This document shows, piece by piece, positions 3,076-14,529 of a stretch of 15,557 bases of DNA. Source of the stretch: Microcaldota archaeon (GTDB lineage: Archaea > Micrarchaeota > Micrarchaeia > Micrarchaeales > Micrarchaeaceae); contig JAKBRD010000016.1 in assembly GCA_021834865.1 (NCBI GenBank), forward strand, positions 1 through 15,557. Direction: 5' to 3'. Every line of letters starts with the position of its first letter. Positions within the stretch are counted from its first letter, which is position 1. The position numbers and the translations under genes are program-made. The notes below the pieces were generated by a model, which was not told the origin of the DNA, made no database searches, and saw nothing but the letters and a program-made list of their open reading frames with translations.

Positions 3076-3969
3076 TCACAGGGTTTTTTGCGCGAACCAC
3101 ACCTTGCATTCCTTGCCGAAGAATGCACAGTAGTCACATTTCCATTTCTCTTCGTAGGGAACCGGGAGCGCCTCCCTTTCCCCGCTCCAATATTTAAGCG
3201 CGAAATTTATTGTGCCTTCGAGTTCTTCTTCTGGCACTTTGAATTTGTAGTTGTCTATTTTCTTGCCGGTGTACTGGTTTATGTACCTTATAACCAACGT
3301 TTCGCTGAGATGGCCTATTCCCCTGTATAACTTGAAGAACTTGCCAGTTATTTCTGGCAGGGTCTGCATGTTCTTTGGGATTTTGAGTGCGTCAAGCTGC
3401 CTTTCAAACTCCTTTGTAACGCTGAGCCTGTGTATCCCGTATTCCTTTGAAAAAACGTCTTCGTTGTACGCCCCAGATATTATGTCTCCCAGAAGCTTCT
3501 TGTAAAGTATGACTTGGGCCTTGTGCGATTTTAGCTGCGCATCGGATGGAAGCTTGTCTGTTGCCCTGGTCTTGTCTTCGACTATTACGACATTTCCGCT
3601 GGATATGAGAAGTTCGTCCATCTTCCCGACAATCCTGTATTTGCCCATATTTCCGTAAAGGAGAAGTTCCCTTGACTTCTTGTTTTTCTTCAACGTTTCG
3701 AGAGCTTCGCACGTGGTGTACAGGCTTTTGTACAAAAAGTCTGCATAACTCTTCGTCTGGAGAACTATTGGAATGTTGGTCTCGTTCTCCATCTCCTCGT
3801 GTATCTCCTTCCCTTTCATTATTTCCTTTGTTATTGACGGACCTATGAGGTAGTTGAGTTCCATTTGCTTCTCGCACCAGTATTGCGCTGCTATGTCAGT
3901 AGCGCGAATACTTTTCTTGCCAAGTCTTTGCAATGCATCCAATAAATCAGCCCGCCTACCTCTCTTCAT
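3076..3969 (-). CDS. Cas4/EXO5-like PD-(D/E)XK nuclease with predicted 4Fe-4S cluster
   Basis: The 297-residue protein carries RecB-family nuclease motifs in order: ATDIAAQYWCEK (residues 23-34), GKEIHEEME (53-61, His57), GKMDELL (115-121, Asp118), the catalytic VEDK (Glu131, Lys133) and QVILY (152-156). Cys32 plus C278, C281 and C288 match the four-cysteine pattern that holds a 4Fe-4S cluster in Cas4, EXO5 and AddB. Proteins of this kind are exonucleases acting on DNA ends. No CRISPR array or other cas gene is near, so a stand-alone repair or replication role is more likely than spacer acquisition; that is inference. It starts at ATG 3969, which overlaps the stop of a possible 11-codon upstream ORF. 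It abuts alaS, so the nuclease and the synthetase share a transcript. A box A (TTTATAA, 4030-4024) lies upstream. Confidence 0.85.
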   Translation of the reverse strand: MKRGRRADLLDALQRLGKKSIRATDIAAQYWCEKQMELNYLIGPSITKEIMKGKEIHEEMENETNIPIVLQTKSYADFLYKSLYTTCEALETLKKNKKSRELLLYGNMGKYRIVGKMDELLISSGNVVIVEDKTRATDKLPSDAQLKSHKAQVILYKKLLGDIISGAYNEDVFSKEYGIHRLSVTKEFERQLDALKIPKNMQTLPEITGKFFKLYRGIGHLSETLVIRYINQYTGKKIDNYKFKVPEEELEGTINFALKYWSGEREALPVPYEEKWKCDYCAFFGKECKVWFAQKTL

Positions 3970-6761: not shown

Positions 6762-7808
6762 TTAAACTGAATCCATTACGTCGTGTATCGCACCGTAATG
6801 GTTTCCGCCATAAAATTCGTTTATGATCCATTCTATCCCGGACCTTTCCCAATCCGCATAAGAGAGCCTGTATACACTCTTGTGCAATACGGAAGAAAGC
6901 CAAACAGTCGATTCTATCCTGGTTTTCCTATTTAGCAAAAGCGATTTCGGAGGATCTTCCATTTCCCATGCTTTAAAATCTTTTATAACGTCAGATATTG
7001 CAAGCCATGTAAGAAGCTTGCTTTTGTCCTCCGGCTTTATGAAGTTGTTCAAAAATACGGGGTTCTGCGAATAGCATGACAATAGGCTTTCCATGCCGTA
7101 CCGTTCGAAACTTTGGTAGTTTACCGATTTTGGAGATCCCGATAATTTTATTATCATGGATATGGCGGCGCGTCTTTTGTTGACATTGTTTGCAAATGCT
7201 TTGTCCAAATATTTTCCTGCTAGGTCCTTTATAGAATTGCTTTCCAGGAAATCAGGCTTCGAGAATATGATTGCATCGAACACGTTGTTATAGAATGAAA
7301 GTGCGAAGCTTACTCCGTTGTTCTTGAAATCGTCCTCTGTAACAACTCCGGATTTCTTCTTGACGAGCCATCTTATCGCTTCGTCAGCAGTTTCCCTGTT
7401 TTTAGATATGGTTCCGTTCAGGCTCCTTATATCCCATAGATTTATCTCAAGCTCTGGATATGCTTCCTTTAGGGCGTTGAAAACTGCTGGAAAACTGCCG
7501 CGTTTTAAAGAGTATATTTTTAGCATTTCTATAAGCCCCATTTCGAAAAAGTCCCCATTTTTAAGGTCCAGCGGAGATATATTCATCACTTCGACAAGCT
7601 TGCGAACGGATTTTATCCTGTCCTCTTTATTGCGCCAATTTGTATTGAACTTTAGCTTTCCGTTGCCATCCCTGATTACGTACCCTTCAGATTCCATCCA
7701 TGAGAGAAAATCCGCCTTTGCAGATCGGGAATATTCCTTTCTAGATAAAGACGCAAGTCCTTCGTGCATATCTTTGCCTGCCGTAGCTGCTTCCTTCTTT
7801 ATTTCCAT
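6762..7808 (-). CDS. Unrecognised protein with four degenerate ~75-residue repeats
   Basis: The 348-residue product has no signal peptide or membrane helix that I can see and looks cytoplasmic. It contains four copies of a unit whose core is an aromatic residue, three variable residues, Gly, a hydrophobic pair and an L/I-x-x-Y/F turn: FFEMGLIEMLKIY (87), FKNNGVSFALSFY (161), FERYGMESLLSCY (234) and WERSGIEWIINEF (320). Core spacings are 74, 73 and 86 residues. Each core follows a charged helix of the form R/K-x-x-A/S-I/V-x-x-L/I, and the first is followed by an NALKEAYPEL segment. Similar 'NGL..LL..Y..ALKEAYPE' repeats exist in uncharacterised bacterial proteins, from memory only. I infer an alpha-helical repeat scaffold. 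A rough count of four lines gives about 39% G+C, against about 44% in pelota. It is divergent from the winged-helix gene. Confidence 0.7.
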   Translation of the reverse strand: MEIKKEAATAGKDMHEGLASLSRKEYSRSAKADFLSWMESEGYVIRDGNGKLKFNTNWRNKEDRIKSVRKLVEVMNISPLDLKNGDFFEMGLIEMLKIYSLKRGSFPAVFNALKEAYPELEINLWDIRSLNGTISKNRETADEAIRWLVKKKSGVVTEDDFKNNGVSFALSFYNNVFDAIIFSKPDFLESNSIKDLAGKYLDKAFANNVNKRRAAISMIIKLSGSPKSVNYQSFERYGMESLLSCYSQNPVFLNNFIKPEDKSKLLTWLAISDVIKDFKAWEMEDPPKSLLLNRKTRIESTVWLSSVLHKSVYRLSYADWERSGIEWIINEFYGGNHYGAIHDVMDSV

Positions 7809-11003: not shown

Positions 11004-13757
11004 ATGCCAAAAATAGGTAACGAGGAGATAAAAAGCGAAAGAGTCCGCAATATACTCAAGCAGGCAAAACGAGGGCCGCTGTGGTATTATAGGATAAAGG
11101 ACCTGCTGATGAACATAAGGTCCAACAAGAACTTCCTTGATGCAGTCCTAGTGGCGCTTGCTTTCGTATCGATTGCATACGCGTTTCCCTTTTACCCTTA
11201 CCTTATAATTCTGCTCATAGTCATAGGGCTCTTCGCCGCCACTGAGATACACCCGTTTCTTGGATTCATATTGCTGATGCTTATAATGGTACCGATATTG
11301 GTGTACCAGACACCGGCTTTGGCATGGATATTCCTATTCATATTGAGCTTCTCGCTCATATACGGTTACATGCATTACAGGACCATACTGTTCGCTTACA
11401 TACTGATTGCTTCGGCGTTTTCATTCGTAGGAGTAGTCATTGCCATACCGGTAGCGATATTTGCAGTGCTTACGGTGGGATTCAAAAGATCCGTAATAAT
11501 GTTCCTAATTGTCGTGCTCAGCATTGCCGCATTTTCCGGAGTGATGGGCATAGGATCCAGCGCGCTTGTGCCGTTGAATGGGCATTTGGTACATCAGGGA
11601 TTCAGTACAAAAGATTTCGGTAGCGAATTAAACTATACTTATGAAGGGTTGCCCGCCCTTAACATTATAAATTTCGCCAAAGGGGCAAGCATTGCGGCAA
11701 ACAAGTTCGTTTCCAAAAATGCCATAGAAAGCATAGACGTGACGTTTGCGATGATGCTGAGCGCCATTTCAAAACAGATATATTACCTTTTGGTAATACC
11801 GATATACCTGCTTGCCGCGTTTGCCATTGAAAGGATTGCAATAAACAGCAGATCCAAGATAAAGGGAGGAAAAGCGGCAATAGCAGGGGTGATAATCCCA
11901 ATAGGATACCTTGCAGTTGGGATACTGCAGCCGATAAACATAAACTACATTTACCCTTTCATAAGCTTTGCAATAGCACCTGTTGGCCTAGCGATATTGG
12001 AGCTTTACAATGTGAAGGTTGTAAAGGCACTTGACGTTAAGAAGTATGATACGCGAATGAAGTTCGGGGAAGCGTTCGAAGATTTGCAGCAGGGCAACGT
12101 TACCGAAACCTTTGATGACATAGGAAACTACGAAAATACCAAGACAGAGCTCAAGGAAGCCATAATAGCCCCTCTGGAGCAAAAGGGCATTTCAAGGGCA
12201 TACAACATAAAGCCGCTCAAAGGCATAATATTTTTTGGTCCTCCAGGAACTGGAAAGACACTTATGATGAGGGCTCTTGCCAACGAGATACATGCGAACT
12301 TCTTTTATATCAAAGGAACGAACATAGTATCCGCGTACACTGGCGAATCGGAGAAGATGCTCAGCAACATATTCGGAATAGCAAACAAGAACACTCCATG
12401 CGTGCTTTTCATAGACGAAATAGATTCAATAGCAATGAGCAGGGACTTGGAGACTGATGAAGTTCACAGGCACATATTATCGCAGCTGTTGCAGGAGCTT
12501 GACGGATTCCAGAAGCTGGAGCATGTTATAGTGGTTGGAGCCACAAACACACCGGATAAACTCGACCCTGCACTTTTGAGGCCAGGAAGGATCGACAGGG
12601 CGATATACATGCAGCTCCCAGACTTCAACGGCAGGAAGAAAATATTTGAGATATACCTTAAAAAATTGCCAGTTTCCAGCAACATGGACCTTGATCTGCT
12701 AGCGGAAAAGACGCCCAGGTATACCGGTGCAGACATAAAAGCAGTATGCCAGAGCGTAGCCCAAATGGTGGCCCAGGAAGCAGCGAACGAGCACAGGATA
12801 CTTGAGATAACAATGGACGACATGCTGAGCGTCATAAAATCGACAAAGCCTTCGACGACGCTCGCACAGATTGAGAAATACAATACGTTCAAGGTAGATT
12901 TCGAAAGGCGCATGGGCAACGATACCACGTCCAAAAAGGAAGATGAAATCACGCTCGACAAAGTCATAGGGCTTGATGCTGCAAAGAAGGCAATAGTAGA
13001 AGCAATACAGATACCGCTGATGCACCCTGACCTTCTTGAAAAATATGACATAAAGACGATAAATGGCATGCTTCTTTTCGGGCCGCCCGGAACGGGAAAG
13101 ACGATGCTGATGCGCGCAGTGGCCAATGAGTTGAAGGGAGTGACCATGCTGGAGATAGACGCGCCCACCCTGCAGAACGAAGGCATAGAAAACGCGAATG
13201 CCAAGCTGAAGTCGATTTTTTACAGGGCCATAGAGAACAAGCCATCAATCATATTCATAGACGAGATAGACGGGATAATAATAAACAGGCAAAATGCTAG
13301 CGAGATAAACGCACAGATAACAACAGAAATGCTTAAGGACATGGACGGGCTGAAGCAGATGAATAACGTGATAGTAGTAGGGGCAACTAACAGGCCTGAC
13401 GTGATGGATCCTGCAATATTGAGGCCCGGAAGATTTGACAAGCTCATATTCATAAAACCTCCAGACGAGGAAGCGCGGGCCAAGATATTCGAAGAATATT
13501 TGGAAAAGGTTCCAAAAGCGGCGAATCTGGATTTCAAGCTGCTCGCGAGCATGACCAAGAATTATACCGGGGCGGACATAGCGAGCATTTGCAGGGAGGC
13601 AAAAACCAGGGCAATGCAGCGCACAATAAAGAGCGGCGAGGATTCGAAAGTCACGAATGAAGACCTGGAGAGCATAATTAAATTGACAAAGCCATCAGCC
13701 CCCGACGTTGTCATGAGCCAGTACCTGTCATTTTATGCAAAATACGGGCAGAGATAA
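11004..13757 (+). CDS. Membrane-anchored tandem AAA+ ATPase (Cdc48-like, polytopic N-terminus)
   Basis: A 917-residue protein with about nine hydrophobic helices in residues 44-335, an extracytoplasmic-looking loop at about 186-257 with one sequon (N210), and two classical AAA modules. D1 has GPPGTGKT (412-419), FIDEID (469-474), GATNTPD with sensor Asn515, and RPGRIDR (526-532). D2 has GPPGTGKT (693-700), FIDEID (751-756), GATNRPD with Asn796, and RPGRFDK (807-813). The modules resemble Cdc48/VAT, but the double-psi-barrel N-domain is replaced by the membrane region, and there is no HExxH protease domain as in FtsH. D1 has an aromatic pore loop (SAYTGESE, Tyr445); D2 lacks it (LQNEGIEN). The C-terminus (YAKYGQR) lacks a clear HbYX proteasome-docking motif. 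I infer a hexameric membrane extractase or unfoldase. It converges with the OB-fold gene ten bases away. Confidence 0.85.
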   Translation: MPKIGNEEIKSERVRNILKQAKRGPLWYYRIKDLLMNIRSNKNFLDAVLVALAFVSIAYAFPFYPYLIILLIVIGLFAATEIHPFLGFILLMLIMVPILVYQTPALAWIFLFILSFSLIYGYMHYRTILFAYILIASAFSFVGVVIAIPVAIFAVLTVGFKRSVIMFLIVVLSIAAFSGVMGIGSSALVPLNGHLVHQGFSTKDFGSELNYTYEGLPALNIINFAKGASIAANKFVSKNAIESIDVTFAMMLSAISKQIYYLLVIPIYLLAAFAIERIAINSRSKIKGGKAAIAGVIIPIGYLAVGILQPININYIYPFISFAIAPVGLAILELYNVKVVKALDVKKYDTRMKFGEAFEDLQQGNVTETFDDIGNYENTKTELKEAIIAPLEQKGISRAYNIKPLKGIIFFGPPGTGKTLMMRALANEIHANFFYIKGTNIVSAYTGESEKMLSNIFGIANKNTPCVLFIDEIDSIAMSRDLETDEVHRHILSQLLQELDGFQKLEHVIVVGATNTPDKLDPALLRPGRIDRAIYMQLPDFNGRKKIFEIYLKKLPVSSNMDLDLLAEKTPRYTGADIKAVCQSVAQMVAQEAANEHRILEITMDDMLSVIKSTKPSTTLAQIEKYNTFKVDFERRMGNDTTSKKEDEITLDKVIGLDAAKKAIVEAIQIPLMHPDLLEKYDIKTINGMLLFGPPGTGKTMLMRAVANELKGVTMLEIDAPTLQNEGIENANAKLKSIFYRAIENKPSIIFIDEIDGIIINRQNASEINAQITTEMLKDMDGLKQMNNVIVVGATNRPDVMDPAILRPGRFDKLIFIKPPDEEARAKIFEEYLEKVPKAANLDFKLLASMTKNYTGADIASICREAKTRAMQRTIKSGEDSKVTNEDLESIIKLTKPSAPDVVMSQYLSFYAKYGQR

Positions 13758-13767
13758 CACGTCATTT

Positions 13768-14529
13768 TTAAAGAACCACAATTCTTGAGAGATTGCCTGC
13801 ATGCACTTCCGTTGTGCCATTGTTTCCGCGCACATCGCAGAATTCTATTCTTACCTTTGAATTCAAAGGCAATTTCGAAGCCAGTTCTGCCGAAGAGCCT
13901 GTGCACGCAACACGGACGGAAGTTTTGCCATCGCTTAGCATAATGTACGTAGATACAAATTTCCTTGACGCAGAATTTACCAGCGTTACGGCAGGGCCTG
14001 CTTCCATCGCAACTCCTACGACATCTATATTCTTCATTCCTGGGCTTAGCAAGGAAAAATCTTTTATGCATGAATCTTCAACGGCAATCTTTTTGATTGA
14101 GGTTTTTTGCGTCGGCCGGAGAAGTGATGCCCTTATGTCCATCGTCAGGTTTGTAATTACTACTGTGTCTCCCCTGCAGAACAACCCAGAATCTATTGCA
14201 TCTGATAGTTTTTTGCCCAGCAGCACATTTGCCGTGCTGCCCTCTGAGCCCAGGACCAAAATGCGCGATACGGAATCGGAGTTGCCGAAGTTCTTTTTGA
14301 CGGGGTTGAAAATACGATAAATTTTATCTTCTAGGTTTAGCCTTTCTTTTTCAAGCCCCTTGAGTATGCCAGTTGCGCCAGGACCCATTAGATCGCTTAT
14401 ATACCCTGCAGTCACGAATCCCCCGTTTATCACTGAGCGCGACCTTGATTCCAAATACAGCCTGTCTGCCTGTTCCTTGGTCAGCAACCCGTCAAAGCCG
14501 TCTATTATGTCATCGGAAGTTTTCATCAT
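13768..14529 (-). CDS. OB-fold protein, RPA-like, likely ssDNA/nucleic-acid binding
   Basis: A 253-residue soluble protein. The C-terminal part (about 165-253) reads like an RPA-type OB fold: NIDVVGVAMEAGPAVTLVN, then TYIMLSDGKTSVRVACTG, a short helix SAELASKL, then SKVRIEFCDVRGNNGTTEVHAG and SRIVVL. A second, more diverged OB-like segment may lie at about 87-150 (SRILVLGSEGSTANVLLG and RGDTVVITNLTMDIRAS). The N-terminal ~75 residues look helical (LLTKEQADRLYLES and TGILKGLEKERLNLEDKIYRI). No zinc-finger cysteines are seen. I infer a replication protein A-like or other nucleic-acid-binding factor; the family is not certain. The ATG at 14529 is nine bases after the epimerase stop. AGGTCGATC (14540-14532) overlaps that stop and resembles a ribosome binding site, so the two genes are coupled. 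Confidence 0.6.
   Translation of the reverse strand: MMKTSDDIIDGFDGLLTKEQADRLYLESRSRSVINGGFVTAGYISDLMGPGATGILKGLEKERLNLEDKIYRIFNPVKKNFGNSDSVSRILVLGSEGSTANVLLGKKLSDAIDSGLFCRGDTVVITNLTMDIRASLLRPTQKTSIKKIAVEDSCIKDFSLLSPGMKNIDVVGVAMEAGPAVTLVNSASRKFVSTYIMLSDGKTSVRVACTGSSAELASKLPLNSKVRIEFCDVRGNNGTTEVHAGNLSRIVVL

What the first reader, a model, noticed from the sequence alone, without database searches (positions are those of the whole stretch)
11004..13757. Polytopic membrane domain fused to two Cdc48-type AAA modules
The usual substrate-binding N-domain of Cdc48/VAT is replaced by about nine membrane helices, and no protease domain is present. Known membrane AAA proteins are FtsH-like (single AAA plus HExxH), Lon-like, or Msp1/Bcs1-like (single helix, single AAA). 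A tandem-AAA protein buried in the membrane by many helices would be a distinct design. It could pull proteins out of the membrane or couple unfolding to transport.
Basis: partly seen in the sequence, partly recalled or inferred. Interest (0 to 1): 0.7.

Follow-up and report, generated by a model that had tools for sequence, protein, structure and literature searches.

The report
Membrane-embedded double-ring archaeal protein unfoldase
A lineage of tiny archaea (Micrarchaeota) carries what looks like an ATP-driven protein-unfolding machine built directly into a many-helix membrane domain of unknown fold; it probably pulls proteins out of the cell membrane, but this has not been tested.

Summary
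Window 11004-13757(+) encodes 917 residues: a basic N-tail, about nine hydrophobic helices (44-334), then two AAA modules with intact motifs and no HExxH. The fusion is a core gene of Micrarchaeota: the membrane domain is in 241 of 301 held genomes of the phylum, 85 of 96 good ones (248 and 86 with a wider model). All matched genomes belong to the window's class; family codes f23-f27 are not among them. The membrane domain has no Pfam family, no convincing structural match and no verified free-standing copy. It is probably not Cdc48 with a swapped N-domain: both AAA modules match Cdc48's D2 half and group together (97/93, 99/97), though AU tests do not reject the alternative. Tested genomes have canonical Cdc48 (48 of 48), a Lon protease domain (48 of 48) and 20S proteasome (98 of 98), but no FtsH peptidase (0 of 98) and no PAN over cut-off (0 of 48). 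Canonical Cdc48 ends in HbYX in 27 of 30; this family in 1 of 204. Best reading: a membrane-protein dislocase; function inferred. No description found in the papers searched.

The parts
11004..13757 (+). Whole gene, 917 aa: polytopic membrane domain plus tandem AAA modules
   Evidence: 915 of 917 residues identical in the nearest held genome
11004..11132 (+). Basic N-tail (residues 1-43), presumed cytosolic, with helix 26-39
   Evidence: 8.62 K+R per sequence over 117 aligned rows; helix in the model
11133..12005 (+). Membrane domain (residues 44-334): nine helices in the model
   Evidence: P65, Y101, Q102, G143, R162 invariant in the 13 rows
11547..11780 (+). Large loop (residues 182-259), presumed outside the cell
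   Evidence: about 76 residues, 2.3 K+R and 2.7 D+E, 1.3 sequons per sequence
12048..12086 (+). Conserved linker D-x-R-x-K-F-G-E-A-F-E-D-L (residues 349-361) between membrane domain and D1
12099..12911 (+). AAA module D1 (residues 366-636)
   Evidence: Pfam AAA and AAA_lid_3; best stretch on profile positions 451-730 of CDC48, i.e. the D2 half
12237..12260 (+). D1 Walker A GPPGTGKT (412-419)
   Evidence: 103 of 117 aligned rows identical
12333..12344 (+). D1 pore loop 1, AYTG (444-447); QWYG is the commonest form in the family
   Evidence: QWYG 64 of 204; the aromatic forms listed add up to 150 of 204
12402..12425 (+). D1 Walker B VLFIDEID (467-474)
12579..12596 (+). D1 second region of homology RPGRID (526-531)
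12951..13703 (+). AAA module D2 (residues 650-900)
   Evidence: sister of D1 in the trees
13080..13103 (+). D2 Walker A GPPGTGKT (693-700)
13248..13271 (+). D2 Walker B IIFIDEID (749-756)
13743..13754 (+). C-terminal YGQR (914-917), family motif YGx[RK]; not HbYX
   Evidence: YG.[RK][RK]? at the end of 166 of 204; HbYX in 1 of 204

Best explanation
It is a homohexameric, membrane-embedded AAA unfoldase that works as a membrane-protein dislocase. SHOWN: the sequence and its conservation, intact ATPase motifs in two modules, a confidently predicted helical membrane domain, no protease motif. INFERRED: six membrane domains form a belt over the D1 ring, which faces the membrane as in FtsH; helices or tails of misfolded or surplus membrane proteins are gathered in the membrane domain, gripped by the aromatic D1 pore loop and threaded through D1 then D2 into the cytosol. 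Having no HbYX tail, it probably does not cap the 20S proteasome itself; the released chain is finished by Cdc48-20S or the Lon protease, or refolded. It would thus do in one polypeptide what p97/Cdc48 does together with membrane partners in ER-associated degradation. The membrane domain shows no conserved set of catalytic-looking residues, which favours a scaffold, receptor or channel over an enzyme.
For: Walker A, Walker B and SRH are kept in both modules in nearly all 117 aligned rows. The listed aromatic forms of the D1 pore loop add up to 150 of 204. The membrane domain directly precedes D1. FtsH's M41 peptidase was found in 0 of 98 genomes, leaving a vacancy for a membrane extractor, while 20S subunits are in 98 of 98, a Lon_C domain in 48 of 48 and canonical Cdc48 over cut-off in 48 of 48, of which 27 of 30 extracted end in HbYX. 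Membrane domain and AAA go together: searches list 116 and 97 relatives that carry AAA domains, and a search for the membrane domain alone gave only five short hits. In the deepest alignment only Q102 and F139 are invariant and Y101, G159 and S178 nearly so: no catalytic signature.
Against: No substrate, partner or operon points to quality control: same-strand neighbours within 60 bp occur upstream in 8 and downstream in 8 of 81 loci. In 9 of 19 deep-lineage loci an S-layer gene follows on the same strand, which would fit an envelope-specific task instead. No HbYX for proteasome docking. The window's D2 pore loop (QNEGIENAN) has no aromatic residue. Lon may already serve these cells as a membrane-bound AAA protease. 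11 of 96 good genomes lack a hit with the 13-row model, and the eight f23-f27 genomes looked at have none. Oligomeric state and topology are untested.
Confidence: 0.5

Rival explanations
1. An envelope-assembly remodeller: the membrane domain binds one particular client, such as the S-layer protein or its export machinery, and the AAA rings take that complex apart or recycle it. It would be a dedicated client-specific segregase (as NSF or Msp1 is), not general quality control.
For: An S-layer gene lies downstream on the same strand in 9 of the 19 deep-lineage loci among L103-L122 (the twentieth, L109, is the window's own kin G001), from family codes f3, f5, f9, f10, f12 and f15; directly next in 7. 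Pfam S_layer_C was confirmed in the six tested.
Against: The gap to the S-layer gene is 217-427 bp in the seven adjacent cases, so no tight operon. No member of this gene cluster was found in the window, in L109 or in the 60 genome-contig loci, nor in the f4, f6, f18 and f21 loci. AAA rings pull towards their own side, which suits extraction better than export (inference).
Confidence: 0.18
2. A membrane-tethered proteasome partner: the protein feeds unfolded membrane proteins straight into the 20S core, replacing PAN.
For: 20S in 98 of 98 genomes, PAN over its cut-off in 0 of 48; a conserved, unusual C-terminal motif YGx[RK] that could dock to something (166 of 204).
Against: HbYX in 1 of 204 against 27 of 30 for the canonical Cdc48 of the same phylum, so Cdc48 is the better candidate for PAN's role.
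Confidence: 0.15
3. A transporter or lipid-handling membrane protein whose AAA modules only regulate or assemble it.
Against: All these scores lie in the range that the tool calls common for helical models; the leading rows are from unrelated families; no conserved charged or catalytic set in the helices of deep members.
Confidence: 0.12
4. It is simply Cdc48/VAT that lost its N-domain and gained a membrane anchor, with Cdc48's ordinary functions moved to the membrane.
For: PDB best matches are p97/Cdc48. AU tests do not reject D1-with-D1 (p 0.134) or D2-with-D2 (p 0.098). A quick tree did not resolve the two modules as one clade.
Against: Both modules match the D2 half of the CDC48 profile; they form one clade at 97/93 and 99/97; full-length score 537.2 bits against the 802.65 cut-off; canonical Cdc48 is present beside it in 48 of 48.
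Confidence: 0.15

Closest known systems
Cdc48/VAT/p97 (TIGR01243)
   Same: Two tandem AAA modules of the classic kind with SRH arginines; closest solved relatives by sequence
   Different: About nine membrane helices in place of the usual N-domain; both modules D2-like and grouped together; under the CDC48 cut-off; no HbYX; coexists with canonical Cdc48
FtsH / m-AAA / i-AAA proteases
   Same: N-terminal membrane part followed by an AAA ring, so the pore would face the membrane
   Different: Two AAA modules, no HExxH, about nine helices instead of one or two; FtsH's peptidase found in 0 of 98 genomes of the phylum
Archaeal LonB
   Same: Membrane-bound AAA machine in archaea (PMC9263693, passages seen)
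   Different: LonB has one AAA module with its membrane segment inside it and a Lon protease domain; in G001 a separate gene (L011, with Lon_C in the same frame)
Msp1/ATAD1 and Bcs1 (recalled, no call)
   Same: Membrane-protein extraction or translocation by a membrane-anchored AAA ring without protease
   Different: Single helix and single AAA module
Plant Spaf-like with a C-terminal transmembrane region; NVL and Yta7 with novel N-domains (PMC5070193, passages seen)
   Same: Cdc48-family tandem AAA proteins without the usual N-domain, one of them membrane-anchored
   Different: Anchor is C-terminal and limited to core eudicots; eukaryotic. That survey, with 235 archaeal species, says only one family member is present in archaea
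ERAD: p97/Cdc48 with Hrd1, Doa10 and derlins (PMC7319771, seen only as search listing and abstract start; Hrd1 recalled)
   Same: Extraction of membrane proteins by a tandem-ring ATPase acting with polytopic membrane proteins
   Different: Several proteins and ubiquitin there; one polypeptide here

Membership tests
Cdc48/VAT | Score over the curated CDC48 cut-off (802.65 bits) | tested here: not met
   537.2 bits; canonical Cdc48 of the same phylum mostly 987-1143 bits
Cdc48/VAT | N-terminal double-psi-barrel substrate/cofactor domain | tested here: not met
   Residues 1-355 give no Pfam family at E <= 1 and an all-helical model
Cdc48/VAT | Two AAA modules, D1 of the D1 type and D2 of the D2 type | tested here: inconclusive
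   Two modules, but both match the D2 half; one clade 99/97; alternative not rejected by AU
FtsH | M41 zinc-peptidase with HExxH | tested here: not met
   No HExxH; TIGR01241 390.3 bits against 600, best stretch 347-595, the AAA part
FtsH | N-terminal membrane segment before AAA | tested here: met
   (but about nine helices and two AAA modules)
PAN | Score over the PAN cut-off (500 bits), single AAA, HbYX tail | tested here: not met
   413 bits over two stretches; tail YGQR
LonB | Lon protease domain, membrane segment inside the AAA module | tested here: not met
   Residues 366-917 are taken up by two AAA modules; no Lon_C among the best 25 of 35 Pfam families shown
Msp1/Bcs1 | Single helix, single AAA module | tested here: not met
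   Nine helices, two modules; definition recalled
AAA unfoldases in general | Ring-forming, ATP-dependent threading of polypeptide | not testable with these tools
   Motifs intact; no oligomer prediction or assay possible

The most novel reading that the evidence does not exclude
A one-polypeptide retrotranslocation machine: six copies build a membrane channel or receptor of a new helical fold directly on top of a double AAA ring that arose by duplicating one Cdc48-D2-like module inside the family. Micrarchaeota would thus own a ubiquitin-independent counterpart of the ERAD extractor, working beside a HbYX-tailed Cdc48-20S proteasome in cells without FtsH and PAN.
Probability: 0.3. Interest if true: 0.82.

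Novelty: new variant of a known kind. Interest (0 to 1): 0.6.

Why it matters
How archaea take proteins out of their membranes is poorly known, and paper searches that pair Micrarchaeota with FtsH, or with proteasome and unfoldase, gave no hit. A mostly single-copy, nearly phylum-wide fusion of an unclassified membrane domain to tandem AAA modules gives a compact system in which membrane part and motor cannot come apart, so the question how a AAA ring takes a helix out of a bilayer becomes directly testable by structure. It also shows a second Cdc48-like tandem AAA design in archaea, against the published statement that only one family member is present there (PMC5070193, passages seen).

Tried and rejected

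Free-standing membrane domain: five hits. P0215 runs on into the D1 linker and then an unrelated tail, as after a frameshift; the other four lie on contigs of 0.97-6.1 kb and were not followed to the contig ends. No verified stand-alone copy. Only the 7998 candidates sharing most words were scored; the same kind of limit held.

PAN in the phylum: 0 of 48 over the cut-off. The single-AAA hit in G001 that I first noted as PAN-like is, read by eye, a protein with TPR-like repeats and one AAA module.

Longer members: six of the 30 genomes had frames over 1000 aa; all six were fetched for that reason. In five printed sequences the extra length is intein sequence, read by eye; one of them (L103) was confirmed by Pfam. 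The sixth (L105) was only counted by length.

Papers: searches (open-licence PMC only) gave no description of this protein; listings and starts of abstracts were seen, plus passages of PMC5070193, PMC9263693, PMC11475706, PMC6017811 and PMC8623467. Most subscription papers are not in that library.

Rows dropped: A2 holds the window and 100 of the 116 proteins; A3 the window and 49 of the 60 loci. In the trees 9 of 12 chosen Cdc48 proteins passed the two-Walker-A filter; 18 family members were used, intein-bearing ones left out. One search left out three of the four extra reference proteins (Nostoc, haloarchaeon, Streptomyces FtsH). The 204 proteins are the homologues of 850-1000 aa held then, the window and the 14 fetched loci under 1000 aa; shorter, longer and intein-bearing ones were dropped, near-copies were not.

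Full report
WHAT IS THERE. The gene at 11004-13757(+) encodes 917 aa. Residues 1-43 are basic. Residues 44-334 hold nine helices in AlphaFold2 models of the full protein (mean pLDDT 83.7, pTM 0.62) and of residues 1-355 alone (mean pLDDT 86.2, pTM 0.85). Helices 160-181 and 260-281 flank a loop of about 76 residues. Conserved positive charges sit at the N-tail (8.6 K+R per sequence), at 159-162 (2.0) and at 282-286 (1.9) over the 117 aligned rows, which places the loop outside if the positive-inside rule holds. With both ends inside, nine helices cannot all cross; which one does not is open.

Residues 366-636 and 650-900 are two AAA modules (Pfam AAA E 9.9e-82, lid E 1.9e-21) with Walker A, Walker B, sensor 1 and SRH arginines in both; no HExxH. 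The first module's pore loop is AYTG here and QWYG in 64 of 204 members; the window's second pore loop has no aromatic residue.

HOW WIDESPREAD. A search of 5.8 billion proteins with residues 1-360 gave 116 relatives, mostly 910-940 aa and fused to AAA; a search with a deep member gave 97, partly with inteins. In genome contigs 60 loci were found through one peptide pattern, all titled Micrarchaeota, Marsarchaeota, Mancarchaeum or Micrarchaeaceae. In whole genomes the 13-row model hit 241 of 301 genomes of the phylum, and 85 of 96 that are at least 90% complete and at most 5% contaminated. The 29-row model hit 248 of 395 genomes (86 of the good ones), all in the window's class; the phylum has 301 held genomes, so at least 94 of the 395 lie outside it, and none of those matched. 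Family codes f23-f27 occur among the genomes but not among the matches; in eight of their genomes canonical Cdc48 was found but no second tandem AAA protein. Against a Micrarchaeota-only spread: a few protein hits bear other names, P0028 (Acidoferrales bacterium), P0162 (ainarchaeum) and P0201 (Parvarchaeota); these may be misnamed bins, which was not tested. Other names given are 'AAA family ATPase', 'VCP-like ATPase' or 'SpoVK/Ycf46/Vps4 family'.

WHAT KIND OF AAA. The best solved relatives are p97/Cdc48, but the score against CDC48 is 537.2 of 802.65 bits needed. Across genomes both modules align mostly with profile positions of about 450-730, the D2 half. In trees of 61 and 57 modules, D1 of this family (18 rows) and D2 (18 rows) are each one clade and together form one clade, 97/93 and 99/97; a first quick tree with a long outgroup left that open. 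The simplest reading is a duplication of one D2-like module within the family. Holding D1 with Cdc48-D1 costs 16.2 log units (AU p 0.134), D2 with Cdc48-D2 21.6 (p 0.098): not rejected.

COMPANY IN THE CELL. Of genomes tested: FtsH peptidase 0 of 98 (control rings in ten bacteria), 20S proteasome subunits 98 of 98, canonical CDC48 over cut-off 48 of 48, PAN over cut-off 0 of 48 while four control genomes are over it, Lon_C 48 of 48. Of 30 extracted canonical Cdc48 proteins 27 end in HbYX, mostly MYR; of 204 members of the membrane family 1 does, and 166 end in YG.[RK] with an optional further R or K. HbYX is the docking motif for the 20S core and occurs in archaeal VAT/Cdc48 (PMC11475706, passages). 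So canonical Cdc48, not the membrane protein, looks like the proteasome cap of this phylum (inference).

NEIGHBOURS. No conserved operon: the commonest neighbour is a convergent gene (window 13768-14529) in 33 of 81 loci; same-strand genes within 60 bp occur in 8 upstream and 8 downstream of 81, by a simple ORF caller. In 9 of 19 deep-lineage loci an S-layer gene lies downstream on the same strand, directly next in seven (Pfam S_layer_C in the six tested, L106, L110, L113, L115, L117, L118; the other three by similarity). This is the only hint of a specific client.

MECHANISM. Shown: architecture, intact ATPase motifs, conservation, absence of a protease motif. Inferred: hexamer, D1 facing the membrane, extraction of membrane proteins into the cytosol, hand-over to Cdc48-20S or Lon. 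I put 0.5 on this, with a client-specific envelope remodeller, a direct proteasome feeder, a transporter with AAA regulation, and a simply tethered Cdc48 as rivals.

AGAINST IT. No substrate or partner is known; D2's pore loop in the window lacks the usual aromatic residue; 11 of 96 good genomes lack the domain with the 13-row model; Lon could already do membrane proteolysis; the S-layer linkage points elsewhere. The fold claim rests on missing matches, which prove nothing.

NOVELTY. A membrane-anchored AAA unfoldase is a known kind; a polytopic, tandem-AAA one with an unclassified membrane domain and two D2-like modules is a new variant. I found no description in the open-licence papers searched, which miss most subscription journals.

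Noticed in passing
L103 631-6483(-); L104 7651-11886(+); L106 4588-8913(-); L107 5092-9252(-); L108 1902-5120(+): Members of deep lineages carry an intein in D1 at the pore-loop sequence WYGES/SE (by eye); L103 (1950 aa) seems to hold a second one near Walker B (Pfam Intein_splicing, two stretches). These loci were picked for their long frames.
   Followed up: partly
L106, L110-L113, L115, L117, L118, L121: An S-layer gene lies downstream of the membrane AAA gene on the same strand in 9 of 19 deep-lineage loci; in L110, L115, L117 and L121 a gene of 686-713 aa without Pfam family follows it.
   Followed up: partly
L127-L156: Canonical Cdc48 of Micrarchaeota ends in HbYX (27 of 30), and PAN was over its cut-off in 0 of 48 genomes: Cdc48 seems to be the phylum's proteasome cap.
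   Followed up: partly
L004 (G001): A 505-aa protein that, by eye, has TPR-like repeats before a single AAA module; first mistaken for PAN.
   Followed up: no
window 13768-14529(-): 253-aa protein without Pfam family, convergent neighbour of the AAA gene in 33 of 81 loci.
   Followed up: no
window 3076-3969(-): 297-aa protein with a weak Cas4 match far under the cut-off (29.6 of 65 bits), next to alanyl-tRNA synthetase; CRISPR genes were not searched for.
   Followed up: no
window 6762-7808(-): 348-aa protein without any Pfam or NCBIfam match at E <= 0.001.
   Followed up: no
G146 C15:9016-10656(-) and G147 C18:42027-43658(+): Frames of about 605 aa with long Cdc48-like matches beside the canonical Cdc48 (512.4 and 505.9 bits): a possible further AAA type in one genus.
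   Followed up: no
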